From the NCBI GenBank assembly GCA_031763025.1, contig JASSKH010000021.1, positions 9,543,358 to 9,607,357 on the forward strand: 64,000 nt of DNA. Reading direction: 5' to 3'. Positions 20,672-63,165 of this stretch are shown here, one piece after another. Each line of letters opens with the position of its first letter. Positions within the stretch are counted from its first letter, which is position 1. The notes below the pieces were generated by a model. It saw nothing but the letters and a program-made list of their open reading frames with translations, ran no database searches and had not been told where the DNA came from. Source of the DNA: Macrocystis pyrifera (lineage: Eukaryota > Sar > Phaeophyceae > Laminariales > Laminariaceae). The position numbers and the translations under genes were made by a program.

Positions 20672-21825
20672 CGTGCCGTCACGTGCTACAATAGCAGTAA
20701 ACTGAAGTGTCCCTCCTGTCGTACCAATAAATTACCCGCTGTATATTATCGCAGGAAGAAAAATACAGACACTTTTTCATCACCGTACACAAAGCAGTGA
20801 CTGCCTGACCTTGAATGATATACCACATCAAGTATGTGCCGATACTCGTACCAATTATTATGTACTACACAACCATGCAGGATAAGGAATCCTCCCTAAT
20901 TCCTAATTACCCTGTCCTGTTGAAAGAAAAAGTCTAGCAACCATCCTTCAGAAAACTTCACATCACGAATCCACACTCGTACAAGAAATGTCCACCAACT
21001 ATAGGTATATAGACGTATTGTAAGGAGACACGCGACACAACGACGTGAGTTCCCATTACACCAACAGCAGGAGTTGCACGGTTAAATAATCTCACAAAGT
21101 AGCCGCCAGCTTCGACTTCCGCCGCGCCATGGTCACTCCCGTTGCCGGCTGAGCGCGAGGGTAAACAAGAAAATGTAGTAAGCGGAGACGAATGCCCCGA
21201 GGTTGGTAGGAACAATGAGCTAGACGATAGCTGTCCGGAGGACAAGGGTTTGGGCCATCGGGTGCTTATTATGTCGGTTAAGGCGTTTGACGACGTCGAG
21301 CAGGGTGAGAGCATGTGGTGGACGACGCATTGGTACGGGATGCTTTCGCAGTAGCTTGGTGGGAAGGGGACGAAGCCGGGATGTCGACAACTTGCCCGGC
21401 AGAGGAAGAGGCGGGCACGCGACGCCATGTCACTGCCTACAGGATAGAGCATTCGCTCGAAAAAAAGACGTAATTTCCATTTTCTTTGATATCATTTGTT
21501 GGTCCCGTCTGCATTATTTATGGTTGGTTGTGCTCGCTAGACTAATACATCGTACCACGTGCAAGCAGTAAGTATTAACAGTCGTTCTGTCTCGTAGGCT
21601 GGATCCTGCATCCTACCAACACGTTCGAAGGTCTCAACTGCTGTTTGATATTTCTTACGAGCTTTTAATGATTTGTGTTGGTGAATGGCAAAATTGGTGG
21701 CGATTTCGTTAAATTCGGCGTCTATCTCTGTTTGAGCAACCACATCAACATGCGTTCGCGTGAAATTCCAGTAATAGCGAAAGTTTCCTTTGGGTTTATT
21801 CATACTAGTGCGTCCCCTATCATAG
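20672..21825. other. No recognised gene
   Basis: A 164-codon minus-strand frame (20958-21452) and shorter plus-strand frames overlap here, but no domain or splice support was found. Nothing else recognised. Confidence 0.4.
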
Positions 21826-21925
21826 AGAGCTTAGTAGGTGGTCCGCGTGCCTACACAAAGATGATTGTTGTGGATTTTATTCTTGCCGAGTGCATACACT
21901 CGTAGGGACTTCTCGTTGCAGAAGA
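21826..21925 (+). mobile_element. tRNA-derived SINE, head fragment
   Basis: CTTAGTAGGTGGTCCGCGTG and CTCGTAGGGACTTCTCGTTG match the head of the SINE at 37866 (GCTTGGTAGGTGGTCCGCGA, GCTCGTAGGGACTTTTTTTC). The polymerase III B-box region is diverged here. The body is missing, so this copy is truncated. Confidence 0.55.
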
Positions 21926-22139
21926 AATGATCAGAGGTCCTATTAAAACTTGTGAGCTCGGATCTTCAGGTTGGTAGGCTGTTCAGGTACGTTGCTTCCA
22001 GTTGGGATCAAAGTACGGGCGAAGACGCAACCCACCCCCTGACCCTAACCCTTACCCAAAACCGAAGCCTAAACTGGCCATCAACGCATGAACGCGGCTG
22101 CGACACGTTTTCATTGAACCAGGAAAATGTTCAGTGCGG

Positions 22140-23193
22140 TAGAGTTGCACCCCGTCTGACTGAGAACCGGGTACCCGGTGGCGGGTACCCGGAACCGTCG
22201 GAACCGGAATCGTCCCGGTCCAACTCACGGAACCGCGGGTATTTGCACCCCGGGTAACCGGGTACCCGTCAGTTGTGGTATACGGAGCCCTCAAGACTGG
22301 GGTATGGGTTGATTTATATATACACTGCTGTGCACATAGACTCTCGTCTCTCGCCCCTGTCTTTCGCAGAGGGATTTGTCGCTCTGCTGTAGTTAACTAA
22401 GTTGATTTTAGCTACGCTCGCGAGGTACGGCGGGGTACGGTTGCCTCTCTAGGAAGCGGAGCAACCCTAGCTGCACGATCAAGCCGACTGCCAGCGCGCG
22501 CGCCGCTGGTGTTGACCATTCGATCACATGGACGTGCGTTGCAACCTCGTGAAAACATGATACCAGGCGATGTAGGACCCACCGCATTTTTTTCGCGCTT
22601 GCGTGAACCTTCCGCGAAACGAGTAACAACATGAAAAAACAGTCAACAATAACGACGCTCCTTTATTATTTTTCTTTGTTTCTGAATGTGGGTTGTTGTC
22701 ACATGGTTTAATTGATTCAAGCTAATAAGCTAATATGTTCGAAGGATTTCCAGATGACTTGACCAGCGAAATAATGATTAAGGGTGGAAGGAAAATAGCA
22801 CCGAATATTGATCGCTTATTATATTTCAGCTCCCCTCTCCACTCGATCCCACACAGAATATCCCACGTGCCTTCTGCCATATTTTTTCAGCATGGTTCAT
22901 CGCGAGAGACGAAGTGAAGTCTTGCCCTCCCACAGCCTTACCACGCTGCTGCTCACAGGCTAATAAAAGGGGAGTAAAAAGTGTATTGTAACCCGGGTAC
23001 CCGGGTACCCGGTCGTCGGGTACAGGTGTCCCCGCTCAAAACCTAAAATGGGAGCAAAATCGTGTCTGGTAACCCGGGTACCCGGGTACCCGTGTCCGCT
23101 GGACCCCCGGGTACCCGGTTCCGGTTCCGTCTGGAACGCCTTCCACCCGGTCAGGTACCCGGCTCCAATTTTTGAGGCCGGGGTGCAACTCTA
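22140..23193. mobile_element. Non-autonomous hAT element with GGGTACCC subterminal repeats
   Basis: Ends are perfect 15-bp inverted repeats, TAGAGTTGCACCCCG at 22140-22154 and its complement at 23179-23193. They fit the hAT end pattern (T/C)A(A/G)NG. A perfect 8-bp duplication, CAGTGCGG, flanks the element at 22132-22139 and 23194-23201, the length hAT transposases make. Inside each end is a dense cluster of the palindrome GGGTACCC in forms such as CCGGGTACCCGG (about 22168-22270 and 22990-23165). The middle 700 bp has no recognisable transposase. The perfect duplication and inverted repeats suggest a fairly recent insertion, mobilised by an enzyme elsewhere. A second TTGCACCCCGGG stretch at 22240 suggests duplication of the end. 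Confidence 0.88.
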
Positions 23194-23295
23194 CAGTGCG
23201 GACGACGATTCTTAAGTGCAGACCACGCTATGCATTTTTTTTGTCAAAAACACTCCTAAAGGTCCATGCTCACAGATTGTAAAACCTACTGGATG

Positions 23296-23475
23296 ATAGA
23301 GCGTGAGTTAAACACCTGTGATGTATCCGAGTAAAATCGACGAGCAGTGGGAATGCTGAACGGTAGGATGACCAAACGAAATGAAGCCACATACCGGGGG
23401 GAAGAAGGGACGACACCTACCTGTGACCACGGCTTGTCCAGAAGATATCTGGGGGTGAAATCTCCTACGATCATG
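23296..23475 (+). mobile_element. tRNA-derived SINE, body/tail fragment
   Basis: The stretch from AGCGTGAGTTAAACACCTGT through ATCGACGAGCAGTGGGAATG, ACCGGGGGGAAGAAGGGACG and CCACGGCTTGTCCAGAAGAT is the body of the SINE seen complete at 37866-38190. The tRNA-like head is absent. It lies between two hAT elements. Confidence 0.6.
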
Positions 23476-23484
23476 CTATGAGAA

Positions 23485-23580
23485 GTAATAGTAACAATAA
23501 TACTATTTTTTATTAGTACAGTAATTATAATAATAACAATAATAATGATAGTAATAAAAAAATAAATAGTAGTAGTAACA
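23485..23580. repeat. AT-rich (AAT)n-like low-complexity tract
   Basis: About 95 bases of TAATAA, AATAAC and GTAGTAG units. It directly abuts the 8-bp target duplication of the next hAT element. Confidence 0.6.
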
Positions 23581-24047
23581 TAATATCCAAGGTTTATCAC
23601 AGCAGCAGTGAGTGACCAAGAATCGGGACGGAACGGGACAGATTTGATTCGTTTGTCGGGGAAAAAAAATGAAAACGGGAGGGGACGGTAAAATGAGGAC
23701 ATAAGCCGTTGGCCGGACGGGACGGACGGGACGGGACATTGGGTACGAAAATTCTAGACGGCACGGCACGGTAACAGACAACGGGCTGATTTCACGACGG
23801 AACGGGACGGTAAATATTTTCTCCTCGGCTGGACGAGACGGTAACTATATTTTCTCTTTTCCCGCGGCAAGGTCGGTGCGGTGGTACGGTAAGAATTTCC
23901 CGCACACTGCTGCTGGTTCCGCAAAGGGAGCTGTCCCGACGCAGACGTTTTCATCTCGACCCGCAGCGCAAGCGCCGAGAATTGCTGCCACTACACGGGC
24001 GACGTCGATTTTTCTTCCCACCCCTGCCCCATGCACTGTAACAGTTG

Positions 24048-24379
24048 CTACATTGCCAGCTCATGGTGGCTGTTCAGATGGTTGTGCCTCCGCTGTGTTG
24101 CTGGTGGCTGTGGAGGTGGAAGCGGTGACGGCGGCGGTGGTGATTCTAGGGCCGCCGCTGGTCGATCGACCCCGCTCGTGAGGTAGGCATCTATGGCGTC
24201 CGTGCCGATCAAACCGAAGATGTTAGGAGACAGCGCTTTCACCCCTTGACAAACAGCAACGTTGCATTGACATGCTTTGACTGTGACACCCAACTACTCG
24301 GTTTTAGTGTTGAATACTCGGCTCCACATCCTTGACAGCGCACGTTTTGCGTCCGGCTTGATGACATATCTCCTGACAT
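24048..24379 (-). pseudogene. hAT transposase N-terminal remnant, zinc finger
   Basis: A minus-strand frame starts at an ATG (24379) and reads MSGDMSSSRTQNVRCQGCGA followed by EYSTLKPSSWVSQSKHVN, ending at 24239. An overlapping frame continues with CNVAVCQGVKALSPNIFGLI. Together the pieces carry a CxxC pair, and then an H and a C at the spacing of a BED-type finger, the DNA-binding domain at the start of hAT transposases; a single frame change falls in the finger. The rest (RNase H-like core with its acidic residues, C-terminal dimerisation region) is missing. It lies inside the 23588-26845 element and supports the hAT assignment. Confidence 0.5.
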
Positions 24380-24947
24380 GTTTTAGGCCACACCAGTGGT
24401 GTGGCCGTGAGTTGCGTGGTCTCTGTGTTGTTGCGTTGGTGCGTGGTGGCGAGCCTGTGGCAGGTGTTGTGTCATCATCCTGGCTTCAGTTGCGGGTGGA
24501 AATATGAAGTATGAAGATTCAATAAATATAGAAATGAAAAATCAACACCACGAGGTATACAACTTACTACTTGCTAGTAATTTTCATTCTTTTCGTAGAT
24601 CGTGATACTTGTACTTAATTTCAATTGAAAGTATGTAAAAACAAATCATCAACGAGCTGGTGATCATCAACACCAGCACAGCTTTTTCTGCTAAAAACAA
24701 ATGAAGCAAATGTGGTGCGGAGCAAGTTCATACCAGGTATTATATAAACAAGATCAAGACGAAGAAAATACGTCATCTGTGAGATCGACTGGCTAATAAT
24801 TGAATAGTTGATACCCAATTTTGCAAGCTGGGTAGTACGCCTACTACTACCGCTGTTCTATATTTCATCTATAGTATGGGAGTCGTGCATAATTTATGGT
24901 AGCACATGTATTTAAGTTTGGTACAACTAAAATTTCTTGAAAATTTC

Positions 24948-26459
24948 CAAGGGTATGTTCTGTAGGGTATCACAGACGGGTATCCTACAGAAAAAACTCT
25001 GTAAGTACCCTACAGACGACTTCTGTGACGTCTGTGGCAGTTCCATCACAATATAGTACCCTATTTCTCTGTGAGGGTCTGTATCATTTCCATACCCTAC
25101 AGAGAATATCTGTGACGATCTGTGACACTTTCATACCCTACAGAGAACTTCTGTGACGTCTGTAACTAATCCAATACCCTACAGAACATTCTCTGTGACC
25201 CTCCACCACAATACCCTAATTGTCTGTGAGGTTCTGTGGCACTTTCATACCCTACAGAGAATATCTGTGACGATCTGTGACACTTTCATACCCTACAGAG
25301 AATATACGTGACGATTTGTGACACTTTCATACCCTACAGAGAACTTCTGTGATGTTCTGTGACAATCCAATACCCTACAGACAGAGACGGTCTGTACGCA
25401 CGGTGGAACAATACCCGCGGTACGGGTAAACATCTGTGCAATACCCCGTCAGCCTGTGCCCTACGTCAGCCCCACGAACCACACTTGAAGCGTGCCTCGA
25501 CGGCCACACAGAGAGAGTCACACACACACCAAAATCTCTGTGTGCGTCTGTGTCAAGCTGGATTGTGAGGGAACATGAGTGCTACTGCGGGCCCCAGCGG
25601 TTCCTCCACGCCGCAAGGCACGGGTGAGGCAGGCGTAGTTCAAGAAGGTGAAGGCGGCGAGGGCGAGACACAAGGAGGCACGTCAGAGGGAGGCGGAGGT
25701 GGCGAGAGCAAGGAACAGGAAGGCTCGAACGACGTACAGATAGTCGATGGAAGCACAGGCGTACCCGTAATCAAATCGGCGGTAGTCTACACGAAGCAAG
25801 GGGACGTGGTGGAGGTGGCCCCGAATATAGTCATTGCGGTCGATGGATTCCGAGCGCAGGATGGTTTTGTGAGGAAAGGCTCTCGCGAGCAGTCGTACAT
25901 GTACTCGCTGGGAGCATACATCGAGCAGAGCGGAGGCGTCAACTACACGTTCTTCTGCATGGCAAGCTCAGATTGCCGCAGGAAGAAGCGGGTGTTCCCA
26001 TGCAAAAAGGGAGACCGCAGCAAGTAGGTACCTACAGACGCGCCTACACGCTCTACAGACGTCGCTCTGTAGGTACCCTACAGATGTCTTTGTGGGTCCT
26101 TACTGTAGGTACCCTACAGACGAGCTCTGTGACGCTCCACCACAATACCCGATCGTTCTGTGAGGTCTGTGACGCTCCACCACAATACCCTATTTCTCTG
26201 TGAGGTTCTGTAGCATTTCCGTACCCTGCAGAGACTGTCTGTGAGGTTCTGTGACACATTGATGCCCTACAGAGAACTTCTGTGATATCTGTAACAAATC
26301 CCATACCCTACAGAACATTCTCTGTGACCCTCCACCACAATACCCTATTTCTCTGTGAGGTTCTGTAGCATTTATATACCCTACAGAGAACGTCTGTGAC
26401 CTCTCTACCAAATCAAATACCCTACAGAGAATACCCGTACCCTACAGAACACACCCTTG
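24948..26459 (+). mobile_element. Nested TIR element with TACCCTACAGA subterminal repeats
   Basis: The left end CAAGGGTATGTTCTGTAGGG and the right end read inward CAAGGGTGTGTTCTGTAGGG are inverted repeats of 22 bases with one mismatch. They match the hAT end rule. The element lies wholly inside the 23588-26845 hAT element, so it arrived later. Between the ends and the central gene sit two arrays (about 24970-25380 and 26030-26450) of TACCCTACAGAGA and TCTGTGAC motifs every 35-45 bases, in the same orientation on both sides. No clean target duplication is visible: the flanks GAAAATTTC and ATTAATTTC share their last six bases only. It carries one intact 150-codon frame. Confidence 0.82.
25575..26027 (+). 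CDS. Element-borne protein, N-terminal part of a zinc-finger transposase
   Basis: An ATG-started frame of 150 codons fills the space between the two repeat arrays of the nested element. The first 55 residues are low-complexity Gly/Glu/Ser. A folded-looking middle follows (VVEVAPNIVIAVDGFRAQDG), and the end is YTFFCMASSDCRRKKRVFPC KKGDRSK. That end looks like the first half of a BED-like finger, with the two cysteines but not the following His pair. The frame ends at AAGTAGGTACC, so GTAGGT could be a splice donor and the finger may be completed by an exon now lost. A complete hAT transposase would need 450-600 more residues. Either a deletion derivative keeping exon 1, or a short accessory DNA-binding protein. 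There is no damage in the frame. Confidence 0.5.
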   Translation: MSATAGPSGSSTPQGTGEAGVVQEGEGGEGETQGGTSEGGGGGESKEQEGSNDVQIVDGSTGVPVIKSAVVYTKQGDVVEVAPNIVIAVDGFRAQDGFVRKGSREQSYMYSLGAYIEQSGGVNYTFFCMASSDCRRKKRVFPCKKGDRSK

Positions 26460-26853
26460 ATTAATTTCGTAATTCGTGGTGGAAATGGATGGGCAGAGAT
26501 GACGACGAATGGTTCTTGTAGGTGAGGAGGCAAGTTGTGTCCGCCGGGGGCGGTGTCACGACGGGACGGAAGGACAGTTCCCTACGGAAGAGATGATAGC
26601 AGCGGGACGGGAGGGTAATTTTTCGGTGTCACGGCCGGACGGGACGGTGATTTGTCGGTGTCACGGCGGGACGGGACGATATTTGTTCGGTGCTACGGCG
26701 AGACGGACTGTACATAAGTGACGACGGTCAGGTATGTCGTTGGCGGGACGGGACGGCGTGACCATTTTGACGGTGGTTTTGTCGTCCCGTCCCGTCCCGC
26801 CGTCACCGCCGTTGCCATCCCGCCGAAATACCGTGATAAATCTTGATAATATC

Positions 26854-27054
26854 CACCAATCAAACCATCTGGTATGTATTACCCACGCGCCATTTTAATG
26901 GCATGCGCGTAGCTTTTTCCGGTTGAAATTCCGAACAACTCCACTTTTTTCGTTTTCAGTACAGCTTTGTTGGGAGAAGGTAGAAACTGCTGTAAGCAAG
27001 AAGAGCTTTAATCGCTGATTCGAGTACATTCGTACTTGTAGCAAGGACGGATAT
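26854..27054. other. No recognised gene
   Basis: Short stretch right of the hAT element; nothing recognised. Confidence 0.4.
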
Positions 27055-27465
27055 ATGTATAGGATGGTAATGTTCCACCTGGTACATGCTATACACTGGT
27101 GTGCTCGAAACACGACAGAGAGTTTGCAATTTGTAAAACAGGACCAGCTAAAACGAGTGCATGGAGCTCTCACGCCAGCCGTCTTTACGGCTCTATCTCA
27201 TGCTTGTGTCGAGTTCAGTCCTTCCGGGGCGACATTGCTATCACCAACCATAGCCGCGGCAGCCAGGATCGGACTGGAGTACAAAGGTTGTGACGAGGGC
27301 ATCCGTCTCACATCCGTAGAAGGGGGGGTGATGATGCACGCGTACATATCTACGTGCTTCGAGTCGATAGTGATACCCATGATTTTCTTCTATTTTGCTT
27401 TTTCTAGGAATCATCGTGACCTTCAACATGGATGTGACGATACTGAAAGATTGAAGCCAGAATAG
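27055..27465 (+). CDS. Hypothetical protein, 136 codons
   Basis: The open plus-strand frame has protein-like character: FVKQDQLKRVHGALTPAVFT, then LSPTIAAAARIGLEYKGCDE and GIRLTSVEGGVMMHAYISTC. A hydrophobic stretch (IVIPMIFFYFAF) follows, which may simply be non-coding sequence after the true end of an exon. I do not recognise the family. No operon or splice context helps. Confidence 0.33.
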   Translation: MYRMVMFHLVHAIHWCARNTTESLQFVKQDQLKRVHGALTPAVFTALSHACVEFSPSGATLLSPTIAAAARIGLEYKGCDEGIRLTSVEGGVMMHAYISTCFESIVIPMIFFYFAFSRNHRDLQHGCDDTERLKPE

Positions 27466-28660
27466 CTTACAGTAGAAATATGCATTGATGCTTGAGCTCT
27501 CAGAGTGTCTCATCAGAGATGTTTCGTGCATTTTTCCTGGTTGATATTGTGATTGGATGAAGACTGTCTTGACTGTAGAACAAGCAGGGGGGGATGTGGA
27601 ATTTGCTGGCACTATAGCTAGATAGTCTGATTGAACTCATTGATCTGATTTATGTGACGGCACAATGACCTGCAGGAATTATCGGTGGGTTTATGAATCC
27701 CCGAATGGCTTGCATACCGAAGCAATTTGGGAGAACATCCAGAGATGAGAGGCTCCTTGCCCCCGCATCAACAGGAATTATTGATACTTCGTACATTTTT
27801 TCTACTTCTTCTGCTCATGCGCCTCAGGACGTGCTATAACTCCCTCCAAAGTTTGTGGCAACCAGCGGAACGGAAGGAGGCTGCTCGTGGTCATTCGTTC
27901 CGCTCTCACGTAAACAAAACGTGTTTCTGGGTCCAAGCGGAATCCAGGGCCTCGCAGCCGAATCAGTACGAACGGTGTCTTCGGCACAAGTCGCGGCAAA
28001 TTGGTGTCGTTATTCATCTACGGTGGTGTCCATCTCCACCAAATAATATGCTATTTGTTCTTGCTCGGTCGGTCCGTTTGGTCCTCTCCACGAAGAAAAA
28101 AGGGGGCTACTACACTTCTTCGCTTTCCTAGATACACCTTTTTTCTCGGGCTGCATTGAATCTATTCGTTTCCCACAACCAATCAGCATCAATTCGACGT
28201 GGCCAACTACTTGCCATTCGGTTCGTTCCAATGCTCCCTGGAAGAGCCTTTCAGTATCGCAGACCCGTTTTGGAGACAAACTACTTGAAGTTTAAGTGGT
28301 TTATCCCTAAAACTGGACAGCAGTTGAAAATGGGCCCTCTTAGCAAAGATGAGCGGCACACCGCCTGGCGCACAAGTTGTCTCGTCAGTCCTACCTGGCT
28401 AGGTGGGCGGCGAGCCTGTTTTGCTTGGTGCATTTTTTTCAGTTCCGTTTTCTTTTGTTTACTGCTTCGTATTGTCCGTAGCAGCCCTCCCAGCGGGACA
28501 CGAGAGCGATGCTACAACCCCTCATCATATACTTGTAATATTGCTTATTTTGGTTTGGTCGCTTTTTTCCTTCGCTTACTGTATTTTCGTGCTTTTCTTA
28601 TAGCTTGGGTTGATTGGCATGCTTTTTAGCTTTCCAGTTCATAGTACAAAGCCAATGTAC
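27466..28660. other. No recognised gene
   Basis: Open frames of 60-157 codons on both strands overlap without recognisable domains. Nothing else seen. Confidence 0.4.
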
Positions 28661-30786: not shown

Positions 30787-32083
30787 TCACCCTGCTCCCC
30801 CATTCGCCTCCCGCCTCTTCCCTGCCATGATGCGCACACTCATGAACGTTAACGGTTGTAGTCGCGGTTGCAGCCATCCTGTGCCGTTCCGCGAGCCATC
30901 ATTACGTATGTTCCGCATGAAGACCTCCGCCCCTTCCTCGACCCGTCGGAACCATCTGCAGGCTTTTTGTCCTGCCTCGCGCCACCCTTTGCACTTGATG
31001 CCAAACTCCTTGAGGTCCTTCTCATGGTACCTCATCCAGTCCCACTCCTGTCCTCTAGAGTAGCCCTTACCCCCGACCATCTCCCCAAACATCACCCTCC
31101 CTCTTCGGCAGACGCTCCTCTCCCATGAGTGTCACAAAGCCCGCAAACTATAGCCTACGCCTGCGTACCGTCGTCTCAACACGCTCAAAGTTTGTCCCGA
31201 CAAACGCGCTGGCATAGGAGCATCTTGCGGTCTACCTCCCCTATCCTGCCGTGATCAGTTTTGCTCGGGATCCAAGTAACGCATCCGTAGAGCAACGTTT
31301 CGATCACCTCGGCTCCCAGCTCCCGCACCTTTAGGCGTAGGCGCACACCCGGGTGGTGACATAATCCCCTCTTATACCGCCCGAAGCACCGACATGCCCT
31401 CTAGCGTTGACGCGATACCTCGACACTTTTGATTGTTCAATCTGTGCTGATAACCCCGCCCTAATACACCAACTCGAGTGTTTGTTTGTACACTTGGCCG
31501 GCTGCGGTGACGGTGAACGGCACGTTTCCCCCACCTTTCGTCAGCAGACACATTTTCTCCGTCTTGGCCTCGAAGACTGTCAGGTCAAACGCTTCACATG
31601 CAGTCACGATCACCGTCATCATCCTCCCTAGGCCGTTAGACGATCGCCATACAATGTCCGCATCGTCAGCTTACCGTATTGTCCACAATGTCTGGGGTTC
31701 TTTATACTTCCCCTGCCCGTCGGCTTGTCCGGCCCGTGTCTTCCCCCTCTTCTTTTACTCATTTTCCTTCTTTCGTTGGAGTTGCACCATGCTGTCCGTG
31801 ATGGCTGTATAATCGGCGAAGCGTGTCTCCAGAACACGCAACACCGCTGTGAAAACATGTTGAACAGCATTTGCGCGAGCACACACCCTTGCCGACGACC
31901 CTGTTCAACGTCGAACATATCTGAGCACTCGCCATCATCCAGCCGCACGCATGCTTCCATGCCGCCGTGGAATCGGCGGAAAACAGCGAGCATTCTAGGT
32001 GGCACGCCAAAGCGAGTCAAAACAGTCCACAAGAGGGTTCGGTCGACGGAGTCGTAGGTTTTGGTAAAGTCGACAAAGCACAT
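30787..32083 (-). mobile_element. LINE copy, decayed, 5'-truncated
   Basis: Minus-strand blocks follow the order of a LINE reverse transcriptase ORF. 32083-31850 reads [20 protein letters not shown], then [20 protein letters not shown] and [14 protein letters not shown]. Around 31.6-31.4 kb come ACEAFDLTVFEAKTEKMCLL and VTAAGQVYKQT. At 31095-30787 comes the C-terminus, MMFGEMVGGKGYSRGQEWDW then RRVEEGAEVFMR. The palm segment with YADD appears deleted between about 31.75 and 31.63 kb, and several frame changes separate the blocks. The endonuclease is absent. The copy is of the same broad type as the one at 60.4-63.2 kb but a different subfamily. Confidence 0.8.
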
Positions 32084-36456: not shown

Positions 36457-36615
36457 TAGGGTTGGCAGTTGGCAATCAACTAACAACACAATCATGACTA
36501 TTCTTGTCTTTTTAAAGCGCGGTTATTTTAAACATATTCATGATTACATTTCCGCGATTATTTGATTATATCAAAAGTATTCATGATCGATCAATCAACT
36601 TAGATTTGGTGATTA

Positions 36616-36718
36616 TTACGGGGGTTCATAGTTAACGGGACCAAATATTGTTAGTAAAAATACCTATATATAGGTTTTTATGTATGCCATAGGTCCTGTT
36701 AACTATAGACCCCCGTTA
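36616..36718. mobile_element. TA-flanked MITE, copy 4 (TTACGGGGG family)
   Basis: A complete 103-bp copy with TA on both sides (36614-36615, 36719-36720). The left end is TTACGGGGGTTCATAGTTAA and the right end TTAACTATAGACCCCCGTTA. The inverted repeats are near-perfect over about 25 bases. Confidence 0.85.
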
Positions 36719-36800
36719 TAGTGGTGATTATATGTTGTAAAAATTACCACGTCGTATTGTGCTTCGTATAAATCACACCCTGAACAGTCTACTAATAACA

Positions 36801-36965
36801 TATGCCTATTGGTCTGTCAAGAGTTTGGGTGCGTATCGATACATATTACCCCCTGCAATAGGAAAGTGAAAGTGTCTATCGATAGCTATCTATTTGATCA
36901 ATATGTTCAAAGCAACATATATATACAATAATGCAATATTAGGCTCATGTTCTTAGGATATACAG
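36801..36965 (+). repeat. Long-period repeat, unit A
   Basis: TATGCCTATTGGTCTGTCAA, then CGATACATATTACCCCCTGC, and AGTGTCTATCGATAGCTATC, all have counterparts in the same order at 39105-39258. More diverged relatives built on TATCGATA, AATAGCCTATT and TTCAGAG motifs fill 37.4-37.6, 38.3-38.7 and 39.2-39.5 kb. The pattern is that of an old satellite or of repeated copies of one element. Confidence 0.5.
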
Positions 36966-37616
36966 TAGTTTATGCCCTCCGATATGGTCCCCAAGGTTTT
37001 CCGTCCACACTCGCAGCTAGCTGCTCTCGTACACTCACAAGACACCACGAACGAGTCGCTCCAGGGAAGCTCCCTCGATCAAGAAAACAAAAATTAAAAG
37101 GTGTCTGGCTGGCGAAAATCCTCCCTGCTCAGCGTTCAAACAGATCAGATCGAACGCTCAACACAGAGCCCTCTTCGAACTCAAACTAATTGGTGTCACA
37201 CCTTTACTCTTGTAGCTCTGACTCTGTTTGAACGTGTTTAGCTCGCCGGTCAGCAACTACGAATTAGGCAAGGTGTGTCTCAAGGCTATCCAATTCTTAT
37301 GTACAAACCAACCCGCGTTGATCTGATTGGTTGCCCAAACTTTTTCCGTACGTCTAACAAAACTCGCATTTTCTCGTGCCTCGATAATACTATGCGTATA
37401 TGGATTTGTCTACCGATTTTTTTTATCATTTGATAAATACTTCTGTAGGTTCATAGCAATATTATTTTAGGTACAATAAGCTATAGTAATTGTTCTCAGG
37501 ATAAGTATGTGGAGTTATCTATTCATACCGATTGATTTCCTAGAATATTCAGAGAAGTACCCATCGATACGTACTTATTTGATCAATACGTTCAGAGATT
37601 TTTGTGCAATAGCCTA

Positions 37617-37721
37617 TTACGGGGGGCCATAGTAAATAGAACCAAATATGGTTAGACAAAATGGGTAAATATACAGGTTTTAATGTTTACCATAGGTCCT
37701 ATTAACTATGGATCCCCGTAA
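37617..37721. mobile_element. TA-flanked MITE, copy 5 (TTACGGGGG family)
   Basis: A complete 105-bp copy with TA on both sides (37615-37616, 37722-37723). The left end is TTACGGGGGGCCATAGTAAA and the right end ATTAACTATGGATCCCCGTA plus A. It lies 1 kb from copy 4, in the same orientation judged by the GGACCAAATAT/AGAACCAAATAT block. Confidence 0.85.
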
Positions 37722-37865
37722 TACGATAGTACTGCTCTTACGATAGTACTGTTCTTGGTCGATCGATACCTTCTTCTTTGACCACTGCCAAGACAAATGG
37801 TACCTCCTAGGCTGTTATATGGATAGAGATGGATGCGACATTGTCGATCAGTACTACCGACGTCC

Positions 37866-43710: not shown

Positions 43711-44525
43711 GTCCGAAAAAAGTATTGGCCGGCCGGCAGGGCTCCGCAAACAAACACCATTGGAATACCATTCGTATTGGTATATCCTTGGTTATTTACC
43801 TAGGCGTCGCGGTGGTTGATCTCGAAATCGTGAACGGATGAAGTATAGAACTCACAAAAGACTGGAGCCTTGGAAAACTCAGATGCTGCCCTACCCGCAC
43901 GGTAGCACTAGTCGAGAGAAGGGAAGACAGTCGTCATTACGGTTTGTCCAGATGGCCATCGCCTGTTGAGCATTTACTACCAGCATTAGCTGGAGAGATG
44001 AACCGTGGTAGTTCTGGGGCGGTTCGACCAAAACATAATGCACGGTATCATACAACCTGCTTTCGGACTGCATGCTATTTGGTACTTGTTGTATAGACAT
44101 GTCTGTCGAGACAGGGGTTGTGTTGTGTGTTTTGATCTGCTCTCAAGCTGGAGAAGTCGGAGCAGACCTGGTACACGGGTGGCAATAGTATGACACCTGG
44201 TGTTGACTTTTGATACTTGTCATCCTGCAATAAGCAGCGAAACACGGTTGAACCTCGATCGCTCATGATCTCCAAAGAAGAGAAAGCCACGAGGCACACT
44301 TCCACGTTGTTTGTATTTCCTCCCGGCTAAACACTATTACGTTGCTGGCGTTTCTTTACCCTTATACTCCTGCACTTTTTTTAATCTTCTTCTGTGTCTA
44401 GCAGAGCTCTGTCCCATGGGTGTGGGTCGATTTCTCTCCCTCCCCTCGCATGTTCAAATTCCTTGTGTCCCCACAAGTAATGTTCTTGTCTACAGCGATT
44501 TTTTATTCGTGCCTTCAAACTACTT
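43711..44525. other. No recognised gene
   Basis: Nothing recognised. First exons of the 45-50 kb gene might lie here or at 44.6-44.9 kb, but no signal peptide followed by a matching donor was found. Confidence 0.4.
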
Positions 44526-44630
44526 TTACGCCGGACCATAGTAAATAGGACCAAATATTGTTGGTGAAAATAGCGAAATATTTGGCTTTTTGTGTGTACC
44601 GTAGGTCCTATTTAATATGGTCCTCCGTAA
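44526..44630. mobile_element. TA-flanked MITE, copy 6 (TTACGGGGG family)
   Basis: A 105-bp copy: left end TTACGCCGGACCATAGTAAA, right end TTTAATATGGTCCTCCGTAA with TA at 44631-44632. The left flank is TT. The centre carries GGACCAAATATTGTTGGTGA, shared with copies 4 and 5. It lies some 360 bp upstream of the first exon I can recognise in the next gene. Confidence 0.8.
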
Positions 44631-44927
44631 TACTATACATCACAAGTGCCCGCAGAGCTTGTTTCGCGCCCGCCGAAACGGAGCACCGCTCGCAACAAAC
44701 CTTATGCTGCAAGCCGCACGTGGTGCGCCTTCACCAATAGTTGTTTCAGTAAAGCTGTTATTCAGACCCGAACGTTGCGCCGCCGCAAAACAAGACAACA
44801 AGAAATGTGCGCCGTGTGCCAACCAGTACCAAGACATTATGACCGGAGAATAGGTAGAATGGTGAAACCAAATATTGCCGTATATTTTACCCGCGAATGA
44901 GGTGAGGTTCGCGAGCAGCAACTATAA

Positions 44928-48100: not shown

Positions 48101-49898
48101 TTTACGTGCGTCCCTCTGTTGGGCTTGTTTGAGTTTCCAGCCCAACAGGTCGATCCTGCTTTGGACTCCGTCTGCAGCAACGGTCTTGTAGGCATTGAGG
48201 CAGATGAGGTCTGCTGCGAGTTGTCCTGCGGCGTCTGCGGTGGCGTAGGTTGCGGTAACGTGCCCGGCCTTACAGGCGACCAGTGCTGCGTTGCCACCAT
48301 CGAGGCGACTGGGGACCTTTGCTCCATGACCGGCGCTGCTCCCTGCCGCGTGGACCCTCCTGGTGAGTGCTTGGTTTGTTTTTCAAGCGCTCAGAACGCT
48401 AACCATTTATAGGGAGACGGGCTCTATTGTAGCAGCAGCTCCACAACATTCTGAAGACCCCTTCTTGAGGAGCTCTCTACGTCATACAGACGATGTAAGA
48501 ATATACCACCAAGATAGACTATTCTATTGTATCCTGTAGGCATACATCAAAATCTATGGTATTCCATTAATGGCACTCCAAAGATGTTTGGTAATTTCCT
48601 CAGTTAAAAAGCTCCGTCCGTCAGGAATGTTATGGGCGAAGGATTCCAGTCTCTATCATTACAGCCGTCGGGACTGCAACTGAGTTGAACGGAGAGAGTT
48701 GTACGCGTTTAGGATAAATATACATTTAACTCGTGCCTTTTAGAGCCCCCATTTTTAACAATCCATATCCCTCAAAGCAGGGAACCGTATCTTCAGGAAG
48801 ATTCCGTTCGTATACAGTCCAAGTGCATGCATGCATCACATTTGTATCGCCATTGTCAATACACATTCGACCTCTTACCCCCCTGTGTTCATCGGGTTTT
48901 CTTACCTTTTGGGCGGTTTGCGTTAATACATTGTTGCGCTACGGTAGGGAGGTTGCTTGTTTGAGTCTAATAATTTACAGCCGACCAGAGTAAGGCCGAG
49001 TCACTACCATTTTTTTTCGCAGTAGTTAAGTTTTCGACATCTTGTTTTTCGCGATATGCACCGCCATGAGTCTGTTTGTTGCTCTGCGACAATTAGCCGC
49101 CAAACGGCCAAGTCGGAGTGAGGTACACAGAGCCACGCACCTGAGTGGCGTATTCGCGGTGGTGAAAATGGAAGTAATCCCCGTGTCTAGAACCAGTCCG
49201 TTCACTCTGCATATTCAACTTCTCCAGTGTGTTAGGAAAACTTATTTTATATACATCGTACTTCGATAACGTTTTTGCTCGCAGAGGTCAACCCATCCAC
49301 CTGCCCCAACGGTCTCCCGGGAGTTGCGGACGGCGACGCCTGCTGTGCGGAGGCTTGTAACGGTTGCGGCGGTGTTAACTGCGGCATTATCGCCGGCACG
49401 AACGGGGCCACCGACTGCTGCTCAGGCGTAATCCTCGCTTCAGGCGTGCTCTGCGACGACAGCGCCGCCGCCCCCTGCATCATGACCTACGACGACGGCA
49501 GCAGCTATCAGGGCGCCTCCGGTGCCGGCTCCGGCAGTGAATCCATCATCTCCATGGCCCCGACTCCCGCCGATTATACTGCCCCACCGACTGCGGTCGA
49601 CGGCGCCCGTGGGGGGTTCTTCGGAAGCGTGGCCCCTACCGGCGCCTCAACCATCTCCTTCACAACAGCGACCCTTTCTCCGACTGATGCTGCTTCCACT
49701 TTGTCCCCTGGGGGTTTGCTTACGACGTCCCCGGAAAGCGCGGCGACGACGAAGGCACCCGTGCCGGTTGAGCGGGGCAGCGATACGAGCGGTGCCGGCG
49801 GCCCGTATTCGACAGCTTTATCTGGTGCTGGTTTCGTTGCCACGCTTGCCGCGATGGTTAGTGGCGTGTTCGCGGTTCTCGTGGCGGTACGCACCTAA
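44993..49898 (+). CDS. Surface/secreted mosaic protein with stalk and two Cys-rich modules (gene span)
   Basis: Six exons can be placed: 44993-45133, 45747-45871, 46364-46416, 46745-47260, 48141-48362 and 49285-49898. Splice phases agree throughout: 0, 2, 1, 1, 1. The product starts (as far as seen) with NGCYAEEEVPPNGGG and YKWLAIFHAGGT, followed by a Ser/Thr/Pro stalk of about 170 residues. Two related cysteine modules with CC, CGxCGG and a second CC come next, then a second Thr/Ser/Pro stretch and a hydrophobic tail (GFVATLAAMVSGVFAVLVAV). A signal peptide is expected but the 5' exon was not found. Tail, stalk and disulfide-type modules suggest an extracellular protein held by a lipid anchor or membrane helix, possibly in the cell wall. 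No frame damage is seen. I know the module as common in brown algae; its ligand is unknown. Confidence 0.68.
45747..45871 (+). CDS. Mosaic protein, exon b
   Basis: Acceptor GCCTTGCAG precedes it and GTAAAG follows. In the frame expected from exon a it reads YKWLAIFHAGGTVAGDSRVA, then CQTNEEIGDLTPADPMFTWE C, ending in phase 2. Without the splice the frame stops at the TAA formed by GAGTAA, which supports the intron. Confidence 0.65.
46364..46416 (+). CDS. Mosaic protein, exon c (short)
   Basis: Acceptor TTAATTTCAG precedes it and G followed by GTATCG ends it. The 53 bases turn phase 2 into phase 1 and read E-LEFRTRNVLEGRCLRGA-G. This is the only small exon found that joins exon b to exon d without a stop; it rests mainly on phase, so it is less certain. 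Confidence 0.42.
46745..47260 (+). CDS. Mosaic protein, exon d (Ser/Thr/Pro stalk)
   Basis: A pyrimidine-rich acceptor ending CCTCCACCAG precedes the exon and the donor is GTGAGC. The 172 codons start G-DLDGDDTYETPIATDAML and continue as a mucin-like stalk with repeating units such as TPSPTTTVATRTPSTTTTPA; units of about 22-23 residues (Ala/Ser-Thr-x-Thr-P-x-P) recur four or five times. Such stalks are usually heavily O-glycosylated. Phase 1 at both ends. Confidence 0.68.
48141..48362 (+). CDS. Mosaic protein, exon e (Cys module 1)
   Basis: The acceptor is GAGTTTCCAG and the donor GTGAGT. In phase 1 it reads A-QQVDPALDSVCSNGLVG, EADEVCCELSCGVCGGVGCG, NVPGLTGDQCCVATIEATGD and LCSMTGAAPCRVDPP. 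Ten cysteines in the pattern C...CC...CxxCGG..C...CC...C...C. Symmetrical phase 1-1, so the module can be added or lost without changing frame. Confidence 0.78.
49285..49898 (+). CDS. Mosaic protein, last exon (Cys module 2, stalk, hydrophobic tail)
   Basis: The acceptor is TTTTTGCTCGCAG. With the G of exon e the junction codon is GAG, giving E-VNPSTCPNGLPGVADGD, then ACCAEACNGCGGVNCGII, TDCCSGVILASGVLCDD and AAPCIM, a second copy of the module. A Thr/Ser/Pro-rich stretch follows (ISFTTATLSPTDAASTLSPG) and a C-terminal hydrophobic run ending VRT-stop at 49898. The tail is compatible with a GPI-anchor signal. Confidence 0.8.
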
Positions 49899-60374: not shown

Positions 60375-63165
60375 CTATAAGAGGTAGTCGAACCGATACC
60401 TAGCCACCCGATCTGTCATTTCGTTTCTGCATTCGTCGACAGCTGTATCAGTACGGCTGCCCTTCCCTCCTCCCCCCCTCCCGTTGTCGCCGTTCTTGGC
60501 GTCCTCAGCTGCGTGGCGCGGCCGGCTCTTCTGCGCCTCGTCCCTGAGCCACCCCGCCATGAAACAGTCAGCCGCTTCGACGACCCCTCGGTACCACTTC
60601 CCGCTCTTCTTAGCGACCCTCGGCCATAACACCGTTTCCACTCCGAACAGCAGAGGGGAGCCTTCCGTGGACCCCTCGGTGGCTTAGAAACTCTTGAGAT
60701 TGTCTGCTAGATATTCGGCCCAGTTATTTTCCGGTCGGCCTGGTCTAGGGTTCTCCCCATCAATCATCGTCCCAAACATCACCCGGCGGGTCAGCCGCTG
60801 ATTGGTCGTCTGCGGTACGGCACCCGCAAAGAGGAGGCGTCTTTTGCCGATGGTCTTCTCAGTGCTCTCGCATTGTACCTTTTTGAGGGCCTTGGCGTAG
60901 GACATGAGGTGGTCAGTGCACTGCTGGAGCTGGAAGCCAATGATCCGTAGGAGAAGTTTGTGGTGTGCCGTTCGGAGCTCAGCGAAGTCCTCCTGATCAA
61001 GAGTCCACGTCACACACCCGTAGAGCGGGGTCTCCATCACCTCGGCCTTTAGCATGCGCACTTTTAGAGTGAACGGGGCATCCTCCATATCATACAGTTC
61101 CCGTTTGAACGGATTGTAGCACGCCCAGGCGAGTCGGATTCGCCGTGTGATCTCTGGCGTAATGTCAGCGCTTGCGACGACAAGACCGCCCCGATATAAA
61201 AACTGCATCGTCTGTCTATATCTCTGTCCCGCTGCTTCGATGATGAGCGGTGAGGTCTGGCGTGACTGATTCGGAGTTCGCAACAGCATGGTCTCCGTCT
61301 TCTTTCGGATACGGTGAGGCCTGCTGCTCCCAAAACGGTCATGATGACGGTCATCATCTTCACAAGGCCTTCTACCGACTGAGACACAAGGCCTGCATCG
61401 TCCGCGTACAGCATACCCCATACTGTCTTCCGTACGCAAGTTGGTGGGTCAACCTTCACCTTGTTTTCGCCGAGGTCCTCCTCCACGTGAACCGAGTCCC
61501 TAAAAATATCTGGGTCTTCACTGAAGCGTACCAGCACGGCGTGTATCACTGTGACAGCAGCGAAGAAGACATTGAACAAAAGTGGTGACAATGCACATCC
61601 TTCCCGCAGCCCCTGAGTGACGTCGAACCATTCCGAGTGCTCGCCGTCATCCGTACGCACGCGGACTCGCATGCCTTCGTGAAACTGGCGGATAACGGTT
61701 TGCATCATCTCTGGTACGCCGAAGCGTGCGAGCACCACCCACAGCAGCTCACGGTCGACGGAGTCATATGCTTTCTGCAGGTCGATGAAGGACATGCACA
61801 GGGGATTTTTCGAGCTCGTCCGAGTTCTTGCAGTCGGCGCACGACAAACAGCTTGTCGACTGTTGATCGTTCTGGGCGAAAGCCGCACTGCTCCTCGGGT
61901 AGTATCTCTTCGGCCTCGCAGTAGTTACTGAGGCGGGTCGCGACCATTTTCAGCAAAACCTTGCCTGAATGGGCAACAAGCGAAATCGTTCGGTAATTGT
62001 TGCAATCGGATCCTTCGTTTTTTTAAGGACCTTAATGGTCGCATCTTTCCATTGCTGGGGGACGTTACCCGTTCTGCACACGTTGACTAGTAAGTTGTGA
62101 AAGTACCGGATTTATTCGGGGTGGTCGATTTTCCGTAACTCGGCCGCAAGGAAGTCTGGTCCCACCGCTTTCCAGCTTGGCATACCCCGAATTATCGCCG
62201 TCATATCACCTATGGTAGCTTCATCTCCAAGCGATGGTGCCAACGGCCGTTGTGGGAATAGGGCGCTGGTGGTTGGGTCAAGCTTAGACGATTTCGTGGT
62301 CAGGAGGGTGCCGAAAACCTCGCCCACCGTTCAATAATGCTCACCTTGTCCCTTAGAAGCGTGCCATCCTCGTCCCGCATGAACTGCTTGCTTCTCACCT
62401 TTCGACCGTCCAACCCGACCGTGCCCTTCAAGTGTTTGTAGGAACCCCGCTGGTCATTTTCGGCGAGCAGTCTCTCCGTTTCAGCAAGGTACTGGTCGAA
62501 GTAGGCGTGCTACGCTGTATCAATCGCCCTTCGCAGATTCGCGCACGCTGTCCTCAGCATCTTCCTCGCGGTTTTGCCCTTCTTGATGCGCATGACTCGT
62601 CGGGCATCCATCCTCGTATCCCATGCTAGTTGTATGGCGGCTGAGGTTTCCGTGGTCTCGCACCACCCGGATTTGTATCAGTGCCGTGGTGGGGGGGGTA
62701 CGTCTTTAGCTAGTGTATCACGAATAACATTAGCACAGGATTCAGCCATCTCAGAGATACTGTTCGGTTGCGAAGGAAGGAAGGGAAGCTTTGAAAGGAT
62801 CCGCGCCACGACTCGTCGCCTGCAATCTCCGTCGAATCGAAACGTCTGCCGGTCGAAAGGCCGAATTAGTTTTCGTTCGTACGAGTATGTGTCTGTTGCG
62901 TGCGAAACGATCGCCGAGGCGGACCATCGCATATACGATATTGTGGTCTGAATCCGCCTTGGCTGGAGGCGGAGGCTGGGGGTGGACCTTAACATCATGC
63001 ACGCGAGGTCGGTGTGCTTGGCGGGGTTAGGATATAGTCAATGCGTTTGTTGTCGCTGCGGCTGCTGATACCGTTGAAAGTATGAGATATTCCACCCTTG
63101 CGAGCGCTCAAAAACGCGTTCGACAGAGCGAGCTTACTGTCTGAAGCGAATGCCAGCAGGTGTTA
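60375..63165 (-). mobile_element. LINE copy with endonuclease end and reverse transcriptase
   Basis: The minus strand reads, 5' to 3': the end of an AP-type endonuclease (63.16-62.75 kb: LLAFASDSKLALSNAFLSAR, KRIDYIL, then KADSDHNIVYAMVRL with the SDH motif); a linker at 62.33-62.11 kb (MPSWKAVGPDFLAAELRKID); and the reverse transcriptase at 61.96-61.29 kb ([47 protein letters not shown]). The C-terminal part follows at 61.30-60.38 kb ([58 protein letters not shown]). The first part of the endonuclease is missing (5'-truncated near 63165). At least three or four frame changes or stops break the ORF, among them one near 61.30 kb right after LTVSE. Inactive, but of a type that could once have mobilised SINEs. 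Confidence 0.88.

What the first reader, a model, noticed from the sequence alone, without database searches (positions are those of the whole stretch)
22132..26853. Nest of three TIR elements, two with perfect 8-bp target duplications
Within 4.7 kb lie a hAT element flanked by CAGTGCGG twice, a second flanked by ATAATATC twice, and a third inserted in the second. The exact duplications define the ends to the base and give an insertion order. No transposase for any is complete here, so active partners may exist elsewhere in the genome.
Basis: partly seen in the sequence, partly recalled or inferred. Interest (0 to 1): 0.8.

Follow-up and report, generated by a model that had tools for sequence, protein, structure and literature searches.

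The report
Three small transposons, one nested
Two transposon copies lie side by side and a third sits inside one of them; none carries a recognisable transposase, so this looks like an ordinary cluster of mobile DNA of a known kind that needs an enzyme made elsewhere in order to move.

Summary
E1 (22140-23193, 1054 bp) has perfect 15-bp terminal inverted repeats (TIRs) between two copies of CAGTGCGG. E2 (23588-26845, 3258 bp) has 13-bp TIRs (12/13) between two copies of ATAATATC. Chance does not give this: 0 of 120 simulated windows held a pair at 12/13 or better, the real window holds two. E3 (24948-26459, 1512 bp) has 22-bp TIRs (21/22) inside E2. Corrections: E1 is a neighbour (378 bp away), not nested, so only the order E2 before E3 can be inferred; E3 has no 8-bp duplication (4/8). 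All three look non-autonomous: 0 of 49 ORFs of 55 aa or more reach a Pfam cut-off. hAT membership of E1 and E2 rests on ends and duplication length only; Zisupton (KDZ) also makes 8-bp duplications. The one oddity is that E3's subterminal arrays (about 330 bp, 81% identical) stand in direct, not inverted, orientation. The limited searches that could be run found no relative; no host genome is held. Ordinary; low interest.

The parts
22132..22139 (+). E1 target duplication, left copy CAGTGCGG
   Evidence: exact match
22140..23193 (.). E1, non-autonomous TIR transposon, 1054 bp; TIR TAGAGTTGCACCCCG 15/15; 8 GGGTACCCG motifs near the ends (self-palindromic core)
   Evidence: no Pfam hit above a cut-off
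23194..23201 (+). E1 target duplication, right copy CAGTGCGG
23580..23587 (+). E2 target duplication, left copy ATAATATC
23588..24947 (.). E2, left arm (1360 bp); TIR CAAGGTTTATCAC; CGGGACGG 4 times, all on the + strand
24948..26459 (.). E3, 1512 bp, inside E2; TIR CAAGGGTATGTTCTGTAGGGTA 21/22; no 8-bp target duplication
24979..25309 (+). E3 left subterminal array (about 41-bp units), direct repeat of 26108-26438 at 81%
25575..26027 (+). 150-aa ORF in E3 starting with ATG; possibly a first exon of a lost transposase (recalled resemblance, no database support)
26108..26438 (+). E3 right subterminal array, direct repeat of the left one
26460..26845 (.). E2, right arm (386 bp); TIR CAAGATTTATCAC (on the - strand); CGGGACGG 6 times on +, 2 on -
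26846..26853 (+). E2 target duplication, right copy ATAATATC

Best explanation
E1 and E2 are non-autonomous cut-and-paste DNA transposons, most likely of the hAT superfamily, each inserted through a staggered 8-bp cut whose repair gave the flanking duplications. E3 is a third non-autonomous TIR transposon, with other ends and other repeats, that later inserted into E2. A transposase made elsewhere in the genome would have bound the subterminal repeats (GGGTACCCG in E1, CGGGACGG in E2, TACCCTACAG/TCTGTGAC in E3), cut at the TIRs and integrated them. Shown: TIRs, the duplications of E1 and E2, the subterminal repeats, E3 lying within E2, no recognisable transposase. Inferred: hAT membership, mobilisation in trans, E2 before E3, binding at the subterminal motifs.
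For: TIR plus exact 8-bp duplication at both E1 and E2; 0 of 120 simulations reach 12/13. TIRs of 15, 13 and 22 bp lie in the 10-25 bp range given for hAT in PMC3942097 (passage). Each element has its own short motif: in the window TACCCTACAG and GGGTACCCG occur only inside 22132-26853, while CGGGACGG has 3 and TCTGTGAC 2 copies outside it. Subterminal repeats serve transposition in Hermes, Tol2 and Ac (passages of PMC10368747 and PMC3260210). 0 of 49 stop-to-stop ORFs of 55 aa or more overlapping the region reach a Pfam cut-off (2, 47).
Against: No transposase links any of the three to hAT. KDZ and Merlin also give 8-bp duplications. Neither duplication fits the Ac-type (nTnnnnAn) or Buster-type (nnnTAnnn) target consensus as I recall them. 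E3 lacks an 8-bp duplication. No second copy of any element lies in the window, and the few searches elsewhere found none. If the host is a brown alga (my recollection of gene style, untested), hAT is scarce in the one census I saw: 4 families, 128 copies, 0.05% of Ectocarpus against 1.80% KDZ (PMC12477816, passages).
Confidence: 0.72

Rival explanations
1. E1 and/or E2 are non-autonomous members of another superfamily with 8-bp duplications (KDZ/Zisupton, Merlin, or P; for P the length is recalled).
For: Zisupton and a Dileera element make 8-bp duplications (PMC12730594); Merlin 8-9 bp (PMC8101967). Kyakuja, a KDZ lineage, ends in CA..TG, as E2 and E3 do. In Ectocarpus KDZ outweighs hAT, 1.80% to 0.05%. 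No transposase decides it.
Against: Merlin ends begin GG; E1 begins TA, E2 CA. The two Kyakuja families described have 7-bp duplications and no TIRs. TIRs of 13-15 bp fit the range given for hAT.
Confidence: 0.2
2. E3 is not a separate insertion but the inner part of one 3.26-kb element, E2, whose inverted and direct repeats are all its own.
For: E3 lacks an 8-bp duplication (4/8); E2 and E3 share the first five end bases CAAGG; 3258 bp lies in the 2.5-5 kb range given for hAT elements.
Against: E3 has its own 21/22 inverted repeat of 22 bp, and its motif TACCCTACAG occurs 15 times in E3, both strands counted, and in neither arm of E2; E2's motif CGGGACGG is absent from E3.
Confidence: 0.12
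3. The TIR and duplication matches are chance in low-complexity DNA (E2's left duplication lies at the end of an AT-rich simple-repeat stretch).
For: 23522-23585 is a degenerate TAA/AAT-rich tandem repeat; ATAATATC occurs 6 times in the window, both strands counted.
Against: 0 of 120 simulations give even one pair at 12/13 or better, the real window gives two; both elements have repeats just inside their ends.
Confidence: 0.02

Closest known systems
Ds-type non-autonomous hAT elements of maize (Ds1, Ds2, Ds-l3, Ds-l4; PMC3260210, passages)
   Same: Short TIRs, short subterminal motif repeats, sizes near 1 kb in one class, fragments of a transposase gene or none; an example of one Ds-like element nested in another is given there.
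   Different: No autonomous Ac-like partner is known for E1-E3; the motifs differ; E3's arrays are about 41-bp tandem units in direct orientation.
Hermes (hAT; PMC10368747, passages)
   Same: Imperfect TIRs plus many subterminal repeats; 8-bp duplication (recalled).
   Different: E1-E3 code for no recognisable transposase; no sequence likeness was tested or is claimed.
KDZ (Zisupton, Dileera, Kyakuja; PMC12730594, passages)
   Same: 8-bp duplications in Zisupton and Dileera; CA..TG termini in Kyakuja, as in E2 and E3.
   Different: No KDZ protein seen here; Kyakuja has 7-bp duplications and no TIRs.

Membership tests
hAT superfamily | 8-bp target site duplication (E1, E2) | tested here: met
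   both exact
hAT superfamily | 8-bp target site duplication (E3) | tested here: not met
   4/8; 6 bp AATTTC shared only at an offset of 3 bases. hAT groups with 5-, 6- and 7-bp duplications exist (PMC12730594)
hAT superfamily | short TIRs, 10-25 bp | tested here: met
   15, 13 and 22 bp; range from PMC3942097
hAT superfamily | terminal pattern YARNG (recalled) | tested here: met
   TAGAG, CAAGG, CAAGG; the pattern is recalled, and no held paper contained the word
hAT superfamily | hAT transposase | tested here: not met
   0 of 49 ORFs of 55 aa or more reach a Pfam cut-off; expected for non-autonomous copies, so this bars only the claim of an autonomous hAT
hAT superfamily | target consensus nTnnnnAn (Ac) or nnnTAnnn (Buster) (recalled) | tested here: not met
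   CAGTGCGG and ATAATATC fit neither, by inspection of both strands
hAT superfamily | further genomic copies with the same ends, one with a hAT transposase | not testable with these tools
   no host genome held
KDZ (Zisupton) | 8-bp target site duplication | tested here: met
   E1 and E2; length from PMC12730594
KDZ (Zisupton) | KDZ transposase | tested here: not met
   same ORF search; equally uninformative for a non-autonomous copy
Merlin | termini 5'-GG | tested here: not met
   ends begin TA or CA; GG rule from PMC8101967

The most novel reading that the evidence does not exclude
E3 belongs to an undescribed hAT-like lineage that does not make 8-bp duplications (its flanks share AATTTC, 6 bp, if its right end is 3 bases longer) and whose transposase recognises long directional arrays set head-to-tail at both ends, so that the two ends are told apart by orientation.
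Probability: 0.07. Interest if true: 0.4.

Novelty: new member of a known kind. Interest (0 to 1): 0.13.

Why it matters
It gives base-exact ends for two transposons and probable ends for a third, useful as seeds to annotate the host genome and to look for autonomous partners. If the host proves to be a brown alga, three hAT-like elements within 5 kb would be mildly notable, as hAT is scarce in the one census I saw (Ectocarpus, 0.05%).

Tried and rejected
Relatives of E3's 150-aa ORF: none in viral contigs (23 pattern matches, 0 confirmed by tblastn), genome contigs (156 pattern matches, 0 confirmed), plasmids by tblastn or PDB sequences; Pfam gives only two matches below cut-off. A fold of its residues 50-150 without an alignment failed (mean pLDDT 35.5), so no fold search was made.

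Relatives of the DNA: E1's TIR 15-mer matched 11 viral contigs; in 0 of 11 was there a TIR in the opposite orientation to the match at up to 3 mismatches in the stored DNA, so I take these as chance. E3's TIR was sought in viral contigs only (0), its repeat unit in viral contigs and genome contigs (0 and 0). Window 21500-27600 gave no match in the phage collection.

Identity of the host: the ORF at 49236-49895 and the reverse-transcriptase fragments remind me of brown algae, but this is recall; that ORF had no confirmed relative in viral contigs (19 pattern matches) and no Pfam hit. Not used as evidence.

E3 duplication: 8 bp rejected (4/8); 9 bp gives 6/9; AATTTC is shared at an offset of 3 bases on the right side, which random pairs of points in E2 reach with frequency 0.008; left open.

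E3 ORF as coding: G+C by codon position 0.607/0.500/0.653 is compatible with coding, but 27 stop-to-stop ORFs of 150 aa or more exist in the window, one of 183 aa overlapping this one in another frame, so length proves nothing. The likeness of its last 40 or so residues to hAT BED fingers is recall only.

Full report
Observation. The finding is accurate to the base. E1 occupies 22140-23193 between two copies of CAGTGCGG; E2 occupies 23588-26845 between two copies of ATAATATC; E3 occupies 24948-26459 inside E2. The first 15 bases of E1's two ends agree 15/15, the first 13 of E2's 12/13, the first 22 of E3's 21/22, after which the ungapped alignments fall apart.

Chance. Of 8,361 exact 8-mer pairs lying 200-6000 bp apart in the window, 3 flank inverted ends of 11/13 or better: E2 (12/13), E1 (13/13) and one pair inside E1's own palindromic repeats (11/13). 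120 first-order Markov simulations in 2-kb blocks (mean 5,811 pairs, fewer than the real window has) gave 7 such hits in total and 0 at 12/13 or better. A looser scan with 30 mononucleotide block shuffles gave a mean of 0.23 against 5 in the window, 3 of these 5 lying inside repeat arrays of E1 or E3.

Corrections. E1 is not nested: 378 bp separate its right duplication from E2's left one. So the sequence orders only E2 and E3. E3 shows no 8-bp duplication: AAAATTTC against ATTAATTT, 4/8. Nine bases give 6/9, and AATTTC is shared exactly if the right end is taken 3 bases further out; random pairs of points in E2 do as well with frequency 0.008. This is suggestive at best. hAT groups with 5-, 6- and 7-bp duplications exist (PMC12730594, passages).

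Anatomy. E1 carries 8 GGGTACCCG motifs near its ends (self-palindromic core, so orientation has little meaning). E2 carries CGGGACGG 4 times in the left arm and 6 times in the right arm on the + strand, and twice on the - strand near the right end; 104 bp of the left arm match 96 bp of the right arm in direct orientation (66%, E 0.005 and 0.001), and 26742-26801 is a weak palindrome (67%, E 0.009). E3 carries TACCCTACAG 14 times on + and once on - (that one in the left TIR), and TCTGTGAC 13 times on + and never on -; its left and right arrays, 24979-25309 and 26108-26438, are direct repeats, 81% identical (aligned), of about 41-bp units. Between them lies a 150-aa ORF (25575-26027). Subterminal repeats are known from hAT elements (Hermes, Tol2, Ac; passages of PMC10368747 and PMC3260210). 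Long arrays in direct orientation at both ends are the one feature that I would call unusual, and I do not know how rare it is: one paper search on orientation listed 4 papers, and I read passages of one of them, PMC3260210.

Coding. 49 stop-to-stop ORFs of 55 aa or more overlap the region; all 49 were searched against Pfam (2, one of them from its ATG; 47). None reaches a curated cut-off; the lowest E-values are 0.028 (DUF4689) and 0.029 (LTP_2), which I take as chance. The 150-aa ORF found no relative in viral contigs, genome contigs, plasmids or PDB sequences, and its fold could not be predicted. Its G+C by codon position is compatible with coding. I read it as possibly the first exon of a lost transposase, on recalled likeness alone.

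What it is. Three non-autonomous TIR transposons. For E1 and E2 the superfamily is most likely hAT: 8-bp duplications, TIRs in the hAT range (PMC3942097, passages), ends fitting the recalled YARNG pattern. The main rival is KDZ, of which Zisupton and Dileera make 8-bp duplications and Kyakuja ends in CA..TG as E2 and E3 do (PMC12730594); in Ectocarpus KDZ outweighs hAT by 1.80% to 0.05% of the genome (PMC12477816, passages). That comparison counts only if the host is a brown alga, which is my guess and not tested. Merlin is unlikely on its GG ends.

How it works. Inferred from the families: a transposase from a full copy elsewhere binds the subterminal repeats, cuts at the TIRs and joins the element to a target cut with an 8-bp stagger. 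Nothing here shows that such a full copy exists or that any of the three still moves. The duplications of E1 and E2 are intact, which speaks against great age, but no age can be given from single copies.

Limits. The collections searched hold viral contigs, bacterial and archaeal genomes, plasmids and phages, where a relative was hardly to be expected, and not each element was sought in each of them (see Tried and rejected); the absence of relatives therefore says little.

Verdict. Real, correctly delimited, ordinary.

Noticed in passing
36614-37723 and 44521-44635: Another TIR family, apparently with two copies: a 1.1-kb element flanked by TA with ends TTACGGGGGTTCATAGTTAA / TTACGGGGATCCATAGTTAA (18/20 in the scan), and a hairpin of about 115 bp whose ends share TTACG, CATA and GGACC with it; the two left ends also share GGACCAAATATTGTT.
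   Followed up: partly
31631-32083 (-) and 61067-61924 (-): Fragments of reverse transcriptase (RVT_1; E 1.1e-05, below the cut-off, and 1.2e-15, above it), likely remains of retrotransposons.
   Followed up: no
25575-26027: The stop codon of the 150-aa ORF in E3 lies within a GTAGGT that could be a splice donor; unproven first exon of a lost gene.
   Followed up: partly
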